In this document: piece by piece, positions 47,046-64,000 of the stretch
Layout: each line of letters opens with the position of its first letter
How positions within the stretch are numbered: position 1 is the first letter of the stretch
Assembly: GCF_900111765.1 (NCBI RefSeq)
Contig: NZ_FOIB01000003.1
Location: 744,001-808,000 of the forward strand
Origin: Myxococcus fulvus
GTDB lineage: Bacteria; Myxococcota; Myxococcia; Myxococcales; Myxococcaceae
Reading direction: 5' to 3'
DNA: 64,000 nt
The notes under the pieces: model-generated
What the model saw: the letters and a program-made list of their open reading frames with translations, nothing else
What the model was told of the DNA's origin: nothing
The model's database searches: none
Made by a program: the position numbers and the translations under genes

Positions 47046-50000
47046 ATGCACGCCCCTTATCGAATCCTGAATGACGCCCTCCGTGTGCGCGCAGTCGGAG
47101 AGTCGTCACGACAGCCGCTCTACACGTTCCTGGGAGAGTCGGACGGCGACGAAGCCGCGCTGACGGCGTACGAGCTGGATCGCCAGGCGCGGCGGATTGC
47201 CGCGGTGTTGCAGTCCCGTGGCGCGGTGGGGCAGCGCGTGCTGCTGCTCTATCCACCGGGGCTCGACTACCTCGCGGGTTTCTTCGGGTGTCTGTACGCG
47301 GGTGCGATCGCGGTGCCCGCCTATCCACCGGACCCGACGCGCCTGGAGCGCACCCTTCCCCGCCTGCGCGCCATCATCGACGACGCGCAGGCCACGGTGG
47401 TGCTCACGACCTCGGGCATCCTGGGACTCGCGGACTTCGTGTTCGAGCAGGCGCCGGACTTCCGGGCGCTCCAGTGGTTGTCCACCGACGACCTGCCCGA
47501 GGGCCCGGAGGACACGTGGAAGGAGCCCGACGTGGGCCCCGACGCGCTGGCGTTCCTCCAGTACACGTCCGGCTCCACGGGGACGCCCAAGGGCGTGATG
47601 CTGTCCCACGCGAACCTGCTGCACAACCTGGGGCTCATCTCCGGAGCGTTCCAGGTGCGCCGCGACAGCGTGGGCGTCATCTGGCTGCCGCCGTACCACG
47701 ACATGGGGTTGATCGGCGGCATCCTCCAGCCGCTGTACGGCGGCTTCACGGTGACGCTGATGTCACCGATGTCGTTCCTCCAGCGCCCCATGCGGTGGCT
47801 GGAGGCGGTGTCGCGGTTCCGCGGCACGGTGAGCGGTGGACCTAACTTCGCGTTCGAGCTGTGCGCGCGGCGGGCGACGCCGGATGAGGTGAAGGCGCTC
47901 GACCTGAGCGCGTGGGAGGTGGCGTTCTGCGGCGCGGAGCCGATTCGCGCCGCCACGTTGGAGCGCTTCGCGGAGGTGTTCGCTCCCGCGGGGTTCCGTC
48001 GCGAGGCGTTCTATCCCTGCTACGGCCTGGCGGAAGGCACGCTCATCGTCACCGGTGAGGAGAAGGGCCGCGTGCCGCGCGTGCATCATCTGGAGGATGC
48101 GGCGCTGTCGCGTGGGAGCGCGGTGCGGGTGGCCCCGGATGCGGCGGGGGTGCGTGCGCACGTGAGCTGCGGCGCGACGCTGGCCGAGCAGCGCCTGCTC
48201 ATCGTCGACCCGGAGACGCGGGTGCCGCGTGCTCGGGGCGAGGTGGGTGAGATCTGGGTGTCCGGTGGGAGCGTCGCGCAGGGGTACTGGCGCAAGCCGG
48301 AGCAGTCCCGGGAGACGTTCCAGGCGCGGCCCGTGGGCGCCGAGGATGGGCCCGCGTTCCTGCGGACGGGGGACCTGGGGTTGCTGCTCGAGGACGAGCA
48401 GCTCGTCGTCACGGGGCGCCGCAAGGACCTCATCATCCTGCGGGGACGCAACCTGTACCCGCAGGACGTGGAGGCCGTCATCGAGCGCGCGCATCGACGC
48501 GTGCGGCCCGGTGGCGTGGCGGCGTTCGGTGTGGAGACGCCGGAGGGCGAGGCGCTCGCGGTGGTCGCCGAGGTGGCGCGCGAGCTGGCCGAGTCGAAGG
48601 ACGCCGAGGCGCTGGCGGCCGTGGCGGATGCCGTTCGCCAGGCGATTGCGCGGGAGCTGGAGGTCCAGCCGAGGACCGTGGCGCTGCTGCCGCCGGGCGC
48701 TGTTCCGAAGACGTCGAGTGGGAAGATCCAGCGATACGCGTGCCGCGCGGGCCTCGCCTCGGGCGAGCTGTCGGTGCTGTGGCGCTCGGACCTGGGGGGG
48801 CCGTCGACGACGGGACGCGATGCGACCTCTTCGATGTCCTCCGCGTCCGGTGTGACCTCGGCCGGGGCCGCCGCGTCCGCCGCCATCGCAGCTTCGGGCT
48901 CCACGGGGAGAGCGGATGCGAGCGCCTCGACCGTGACTTCGCACGGCGGGGACTCCCCCGATGCGTCGGGCTCCGTCAGCCGTACGGATGGGGGCGCTTC
49001 GTTGACGCAGGCAGGTGCGGCCGCCGTGTCGGCAGCGGAGCTGGAGCGTGCGCTGCGCGAGGAGATCTCCGCGGTGCTCGGTGGTGGGGCCCCTGCGCTC
49101 GACGCGGATGCGCCACTGACTCGACTGGGCATGGACTCGCTCGGTGCGGCGGACCTGCAGTCCCGCATCGAGAAGCGCCTGGGTGTACGGGTCTCCGCGG
49201 CCACGCTGCTCCAGGACGTGAGCCTCCAGGGCCTCATCTCGGAGGTCCTCAAGGCCGGCCAGGGCGGCACGGACTCGCGTCCGGGGCCGGTGGCCCGGGG
49301 TGGACCCAGCACGGGAGACCATCCCGCGTCCTTCGCGCAGCAGCGCCTGTGGTTCATCCAGCAACTCGAGCCGGCGTCGACCGCCTACCACATCCCCCTC
49401 GCCTTCTCGCTGCGTGGGCCGCTCGACACGCAGGCCCTGGAGCGCGCGCTGAACGAGCTGGTCCGCCGCCATGACGTCCTGCGGACCACGCTCACCGCGA
49501 AGGACGGCGCCCTCACCCAGCACGTCCACGCCCCCTCACCTGTCGTCCTCGATCAGGTCCACGCGGACGCGGACGATGTCGCGGACCGCGCCTCCGTGCT
49601 CGACGCGGTGGCCGTGCGAGATGGTCAGCGCCCCATGGACCCCGCGACGGGTCCGTTGCTCCGCTTCACCCTGGTCCGCTTCGCGGCGGAGGACCACGCC
49701 CTCGTGGTCTCCGTGCACCACCTGGTCGCGGATGGCTGGTCCATCGGCCTGATGGCTCGGGAGCTCGCGACCCTGCTCGTCGCGTTCACCCAGGGGCAGC
49801 CGTCCCCGCTGCCCACGCCCACGCTCCAGTACGCGGACTTCGCGGTGTGGCAGCACGAGCACCTCACCCCCAAGGCCCTGCGCAAGGAGCTGACGTGGTG
49901 GAAGCAGGCGCTCGCGGAGGCGCCGTCACTGCTCGCGCTCCCCACGGACCGTCCCCGCCCCCAGCGCCTGTCCTTCCATGGTGCCCGCCGCTCACGGCTG

Positions 50001-64000: not shown

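What the first reader, a model, noticed from the sequence alone, without database searches (positions are those of the whole stretch)
47046..64000. Giant FAAL-initiated lipopeptide NRPS, one open frame of at least 5,651 codons
The single frame has no stop across 16,955 bases and encodes FAAL-ACP followed by four complete C-A-PCP modules and a fifth C domain. Predicted chain: fatty acyl, N-methyl-Thr, unknown, Val-like, Ser, and further residues beyond the window. This is a lipopeptide pathway whose product I cannot name. Large single-gene myxobacterial assembly lines such as myxoprincomide are useful comparisons.
Basis: partly seen in the sequence, partly recalled or inferred. Interest (0 to 1): 0.82.

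Follow-up and report, generated by a model that had tools for sequence, protein, structure and literature searches.

The report
Myxoprincomide-type synthetase gene, shortened by misassembly
The giant lipopeptide gene is real, but its fourth module looks like an assembly join of two near-identical stretches that leaves out about 13.9 kb; the whole gene, about 14,500 codons, is most likely this species' version of the known Myxococcus enzyme that makes myxoprincomide.

Summary
In detail: one frame opens at 47046 and stays open to the window's end (5,651 codons), with FAAL-ACP, an N-methylating module and further C-A-PCP modules. On the same contig it runs to 76793: 9,915 codons, eight A domains, thioesterase. 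That shorter frame is very likely a repeat-collapse artefact. Module 4 switches, between 61869 and 62593, from matching module 4 of relatives to matching the module behind their PKS segment. The missing segment is present in the same assembly as an orphan contig (C21, 13,469 b, one frame open at both ends) that begins and ends in the repeat and aligns in two adjoining pieces, at 94-95% DNA identity, to the matching stretch of the nearest relative's intact 14,352-aa gene. Tiled together: about 14,537 codons, FAAL-ACP, five NRPS modules, KS-AT-ACP, a degenerate C-A module holding a luciferase-like monooxygenase, five NRPS modules, TE. KS-AT plus monooxygenase occur in 14 of 14 relatives examined, Myxococcus xanthus-like genomes included, which points to the myxoprincomide synthetase (MXAN_3779), reported in 15 of 15 Myxococcus/Pyxidicoccus genomes of one survey. 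So: a new member of a known family, with partly different residue codes. An unexpected side result is concerted evolution of the repeated serine A-domain cores.

The parts
47046..64000 (+). in-window part of the synthetase frame; continues to 76793 beyond the window on the same contig
47046..48785 (+). FAAL (fatty acyl-AMP ligase) domain
49023..49250 (+). acyl carrier protein after the FAAL (LGMDSL motif at 49125; edges approximate)
49323..53669 (+). module 1: C-A-nMT-PCP, A code DFWNIGMVH (Thr, recalled), N-methyltransferase 52086-53225
53745..56831 (+). module 2: C-A-PCP, A code DPLVVGGVA (unassigned)
56898..59990 (+). module 3: C-A-PCP, A code DALWLGGTF (Val-like, recalled)
60066..63185 (+). 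chimeric module: C and start of A belong to module 4, end of A and PCP belong to the first module behind the PKS/monooxygenase segment; A code DVWHVSLVD (Ser, recalled) is the code of both parents in G015 and M. qinghaiensis
61869..62593 (+). zone that holds the false junction: C21's 3' end is identical to the window from 61869 to 62174, C21's 5' end starts at the equivalent of 62572 and first differs at 62594; 62175-62571 lies between the two C21 ends
63252..64000 (+). C domain of the next module (window module 5), cut by the window edge
44587..46887 (+). HSP70-like gene (with a weak PilZ match) directly upstream; found upstream of the synthetase in 12 of 13 relatives searched

Best explanation
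The frame is the two outer parts of one giant NRPS-PKS gene of the myxoprincomide type, joined by mistake in the assembly. Two serine-type A-domain cores of the real gene (module 4 and the first module behind the PKS/monooxygenase segment) are nearly identical; the assembler walked from the first into the second and left the stretch between them as the orphan contig C21. The real gene is about 14,537 codons: FAAL-ACP; C-A-nMT-PCP; four C-A-PCP; KS-AT-ACP; a C domain and a broken A domain that holds a luciferase-like monooxygenase, without a recognisable PCP; five C-A-PCP; TE. Working model: the FAAL loads a fatty acid on the ACP, five modules add N-methyl-Thr, an unassigned residue, a Val-like residue, Ser and an unassigned residue (code DGLHHGAVI); the PKS module adds a C2 unit which the built-in monooxygenase oxidises; five modules add Ser, a Val-like residue, two unassigned residues and Asp/Asn; the TE releases the chain, which may later be trimmed at the acylated end. 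Shown by sequence: domain order, codes, tiling with C21. Inferred: every chemical step, the residue names, the trimming, and the identity of the product as a myxoprincomide congener.
For: Window aa 4301-4780 match M. qinghaiensis module 4 (0.75-0.97 per 40 aa) and not its post-PKS module (0.19-0.60); aa 4821-5220 match both about equally; from 5221 on they match the post-PKS module (0.75-0.97) and not module 4 (0.36-0.68). C21 is one frame open at both ends, 4,489 aa, and aligns to G015 gene DNA as 25457-32164 (95.2%) and 32196-38523 (94.5%), while the window gene aligns to G015 up to 25676 and again from 37716. C21's last 807 bases match window 61368-62174 with 29 differences, the last at 61868; its first 220 bases match from 62572 with 4 differences, then diverge. 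In the own genome there is a single FAAL start of this type at E <= 1e-200, and no other near-identical copy of C21's 5' end beyond the window. C21 holds KS with the HTACSTG active-site motif, AT, ACP, and a monooxygenase above the TIGR04020 cut-off (483.7 against 244.45 bits). KS-AT and monooxygenase occur in 14 of 14 relatives strung by domain. 14 of 27 same-genus genomes (own included) have a single frame of 13,299 aa or more at this FAAL, and G015, nearest by FAAL (98%), has 14,352 aa. Myxoprincomide: MXAN_3779 in M. xanthus (passages of PMC11619377 and PMC6617876); cluster listed as NRPS/PKS (passage of PMC4902038); found in 15 of 15 Myxococcus/Pyxidicoccus genomes (passage of PMC9684338); mxan3779 lies at 180 degrees of the DK1622 chromosome (passage of PMC3778016), and in the single-contig genomes G034 and G019 the orthologue lies at 176 and 183 degrees if the records start at the origin. 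G034 and G022 are 97.7% and 98.2% identical to M. xanthus AM003 over the N-terminal part.
Against: No reads were available, so a real deletion in part of the culture is not excluded. The sequence of MXAN_3779 itself and MIBiG BGC0000393 were not held; the link runs through M. xanthus AM003 (whose copy is cut by its contig after 1,264 aa), unnamed M. xanthus-like genomes, map position and published surveys. Only 4 of 10 A codes equal those of the M. xanthus-like G022. 13 of 27 same-genus genomes show shorter frames at this FAAL; two of these, both closed, are broken into two overlapping frames, the other ten besides the window's own were not examined, so their cause (contig ends or otherwise) is mostly unknown. 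In G017 the two copies of the repeat are only 85.6% alike.
Confidence: 0.88

Rival explanations
1. The 9,915-codon gene is real: a natural deletion by recombination between the two serine A-domain cores made a PKS-less eight-residue lipopeptide synthetase.
For: The frame is intact across the join and the contig continues for 168 kb beyond the end of the gene's module row; the two cores are near-identical, an ideal substrate for recombination.
Against: The excised piece is still in the assembly as an orphan contig whose ends lie in the repeat; no relative among the 14 strung by domain lacks KS-AT or the monooxygenase.
Confidence: 0.07
2. C21 belongs to a second, separate myxoprincomide-like gene of the same genome, and the window gene is a complete shorter paralogue.
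For: The genome has several other NRPS contigs, some open at their ends.
Against: Only one FAAL start of this type at E <= 1e-200 in the own genome; C21 fills exactly the stretch missing from the window relative to G015 and M. qinghaiensis.
Confidence: 0.03
3. The gene is an FAAL-initiated synthetase of an unrelated, unnamed lipopeptide family, not the myxoprincomide type.
For: MXAN_3779 was not compared directly; 6 of 10 A codes differ from the M. xanthus-like G022.
Against: Same domain order as G022 once C21 is put in; HSP70-like gene upstream in 12 of 13 relatives searched; map position; survey statements.
Confidence: 0.08

Closest known systems
Myxoprincomide synthetase of Myxococcus xanthus DK1622 (MXAN_3779; MIBiG BGC0000393)
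   Same: As judged through M. xanthus-like G022 and G034: single giant gene, FAAL-ACP start, N-methyltransferase in module 1, KS-AT-ACP followed by a C-A-type module with a built-in luciferase-like monooxygenase, TE at the end, HSP70-like gene upstream.
   Different: Only 4 of 10 A codes are identical to G022; module 1 reads Thr here and Ser there; the last module reads Asp/Asn here and an unassigned code there (residue names recalled). The M. xanthus-like G034 has one more module before the KS.
Myxoprincomide-type clusters of other Myxococcales with differing organisation (described in PMC10435759, passages seen)
   Same: High homology with altered module order is already described for this family.
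   Different: Strain and residues differ; the present species is not among those I could name.
Myxothiazol/melithiazol synthetases with a monooxygenase inside an A domain (recalled, not tested)
   Same: Luciferase-like monooxygenase embedded in an A domain.
   Different: Here the surrounding A domain lacks the SGSTG motif and no PCP was found before the next C domain.

Membership tests
FAAL-initiated lipopeptide NRPS | N-terminal fatty acyl-AMP ligase followed by a carrier protein and a C domain | tested here: met
   true only of the collapsed frame; the orphan contig C21, which tiles into it, carries KS-AT-ACP
Myxoprincomide-type synthetase | FAAL start, NRPS modules, one KS-AT-ACP, built-in monooxygenase, NRPS modules, TE in one giant gene | tested here: met
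   window plus C21; same order in M. xanthus-like G022
Myxoprincomide-type synthetase | sequence orthology to MXAN_3779 itself | not testable with these tools
   DK1622 accession not held; indirect evidence through M. xanthus AM003, 78% over the FAAL
Myxoprincomide-type synthetase | same genomic place | tested here: inconclusive
   HSP70-like gene upstream in 12 of 13 relatives searched; 176 and 183 degrees in G034 and G019 against 180 in DK1622, assuming records start at the origin
Myxoprincomide producer (the compound) | same residues as myxoprincomide c-506 | tested here: inconclusive
   A codes differ at 6 of 10 positions from G022; the structure paper was not held

The most novel reading that the evidence does not exclude
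The short and the long gene both exist in the culture: recombination between the gene-converted serine A-domain cores loops the 13.9-kb PKS/monooxygenase cassette out (C21) in some cells, so that one locus alternates between a hybrid and a PKS-less lipopeptide.
Probability: 0.03. Interest if true: 0.65.

Novelty: new member of a known kind. Interest (0 to 1): 0.25.

Why it matters
It shows a trap for genome mining: in this gene family near-identical A-domain cores inside one gene can make an assembly drop a PKS/monooxygenase segment and still leave one perfect open frame with a convincing but wrong domain order and product prediction. The same repeats are evidence of concerted evolution inside single assembly-line genes, which could be tested with long-read genomes.

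Tried and rejected
Rejected: the NRPS-only eight-residue line as a real gene. Rejected: an unknown family. Rejected: C21 as a different gene. Led nowhere: promoter/terminator scan upstream of the gene found no site of either kind; paper searches for myxoprincomide with beta-leucine found 0 papers, and with monooxygenase found 3, none of which I opened, so the structure and the role of the monooxygenase in myxoprincomide are recalled only. A search for papers on collapse of NRPS repeats listed 3 papers, none opened. A first attempt to lay the two G015 copies side by side used wrong offsets and its 60-base table is meaningless; the G015 figure comes. NRPS substrate predictors, antiSMASH and MIBiG were not available; residue names for A codes are recalled. 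No structure was predicted.

Full report
Observation. The frame is there as described: ATG at 47046, open to the window's end, 5,651 codons. The window is contig C3:744001-808000 of a 10.8-Mb genome in 42 contigs. On C3 the frame continues to 76793 and ends with a thioesterase: 9,915 codons, no N. Domain order by motif and by phmmer with seeds cut from the gene: FAAL-ACP, C-A-nMT-PCP, seven C-A-PCP, TE. A codes: DFWNIGMVH, DPLVVGGVA, DALWLGGTF, DVWHVSLVD, DALWLGGTF, DTENVGTAV, DPLLWGAVV, DLTKVGHVG. By recalled code tables 1, 4 and 8 are Thr, Ser and Asp/Asn, 3 and 5 are Val-like; the rest I leave open.

The first sign of trouble. Their frames at this FAAL are 14.4 thousand codons, not 9.9. Between two A domains they carry KS-AT-ACP and a luciferase-like monooxygenase. 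The same genome as the window has a 13,469-base contig, C21, that is one frame open at both ends, carries exactly such a segment, and ends in sequence about 97% identical to the window's module 4.

The test. Window residues 4301-4780 follow M. qinghaiensis module 4; 4821-5220 follow both its module 4 and its post-PKS module about equally; from 5221 they follow the post-PKS module only. In G015, the same-genus genome nearest by FAAL (98%), the gene is one frame of 14,352 aa. C21 aligns to its DNA at 25457-32164 (95.2%) and 32196-38523 (94.5%); the window gene aligns up to 25676 and again from 37716 on. C21's last 807 bases match window 61368-62174 with 29 differences, none after 61868; its first base matches 62572, with 4 differences in the first 220 bases before the two diverge. 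The false junction therefore lies in 61869-62593. No further near-identical copy of C21's 5' end exists in the own assembly (apart from itself, the best match is the window region, and the rest are 65-82% or less), and only one FAAL of this type passes E <= 1e-200 there. Adding lengths (5,176 + 4,489 + 4,872) gives about 14,537 codons.

What the gene is. With C21 put in, the order is FAAL-ACP; C-A-nMT-PCP; four C-A-PCP; KS-AT-ACP; C-A(fragment)-monooxygenase-A(fragment); five C-A-PCP; TE. KS-AT and monooxygenase are present in 14 of 14 relatives strung by domain; the methyltransferase in 10 of 14 (absent in G036 and the three Corallococcus genes); module numbers differ. In two of the 14 (closed genomes G016 and G019) the gene is broken into two overlapping frames. 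G022, 98.2% identical to M. xanthus AM003 over the N-terminal part, has the same order as the tiled gene. M. xanthus makes myxoprincomide with MXAN_3779 (passages of PMC11619377, PMC6617876), listed as an NRPS/PKS cluster (passage of PMC4902038). Myxoprincomide-506 clusters were found in all 15 Myxococcus and Pyxidicoccus genomes of one survey (passage of PMC9684338) and called conserved in both genera in another (passage of PMC12224551). In my search 27 of 27 same-genus genomes, own included, have a match at E <= 1e-200; identity is 74% or more in 26 and 66% in G036. 14 of 27 have a single frame of at least 13,299 aa there; 13 of 27 are shorter, including the window's own. I did not establish the cause for ten of those 13. 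MXAN_3779 maps to 180 degrees in DK1622 (passage of PMC3778016); the orthologues in single-contig G034 and G019 lie at 176 and 183 degrees if the records start at the origin.

What is new. The residue codes: of ten A domains, 4 are identical to G022 (positions 3, 4, 6, 8) and a fifth is similar (DGLHHGAVI against DGMHHVGII). So the product should be a relative of myxoprincomide, not myxoprincomide itself. [quoted passage not shown]). This is a new member of a known kind.

Mechanism of the artefact, and a side result. Over 681 bases the two serine A cores are 96.9% identical within the window's genome, 98.7% in G015, 96.5% in M. qinghaiensis, and 96.2-97.7% among three copies in G034, while copies from different species are 65.6-88.8% identical. 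Copies within a gene are thus more alike than orthologues, the mark of gene conversion or repeated duplication. G017 is the exception among the five: its two copies are 85.6% alike, close to its identity with other species. PMC10435759 speaks of likely concerted evolution of these clusters; a search for adenylation domain, gene conversion, concerted evolution and nonribosomal peptide together listed one paper, PMC9205934, which I did not open.

Limits. No reads, no MIBiG, no DK1622 sequence, no substrate predictor. A mixed population with both forms is not excluded and is my most novel reading, at 3%. Functional statements on acyl loading, monooxygenase chemistry and later trimming are inference; what I recall of the myxoprincomide structure comes from no call.

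Noticed in passing
window 61488-62171 and C21 3' end; G015, M. qinghaiensis, G034 genes: Serine-type A-domain cores inside one gene are 96.2-98.7% identical but only 65.6-88.8% identical between species (G017 excepted, 85.6% within): concerted evolution inside an assembly-line gene.
   Followed up: partly
C21 (L013), about 300 residues between AT and ACP: Tandem Thr-Gly-Phe/Pro-Ala-rich linker; the stretch is about 433 bases where G015 has 31 between the aligned parts.
   Followed up: partly
C21 (L013), frame residues 2538-3790: The monooxygenase sits in a broken A domain without SGSTG motif, preceded by a C domain with HHVVCDT in place of HHxxxDG, and no PCP was recognised before the next C domain.
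   Followed up: partly
G016 and G019 (L129-L131, L126-L128): In these two single-contig genomes the orthologue is split into two overlapping frames (3,710 + 10,874 and 9,051 + 6,365 aa): sequencing error or real frameshift, not decided.
   Followed up: no
76861-78333 (beyond the window, - strand): MATE-family transporter gene next to the end of the synthetase; found in 2 of 13 relatives searched (G015, G017), though less downstream sequence was held for some.
   Followed up: no
G000 contigs C23, C25, C28 and the start of C18: Other NRPS pieces with frames open at contig ends; C23, C25 and C28 are 4-6 kb and open at both ends, probably further unresolved NRPS repeats.
   Followed up: no
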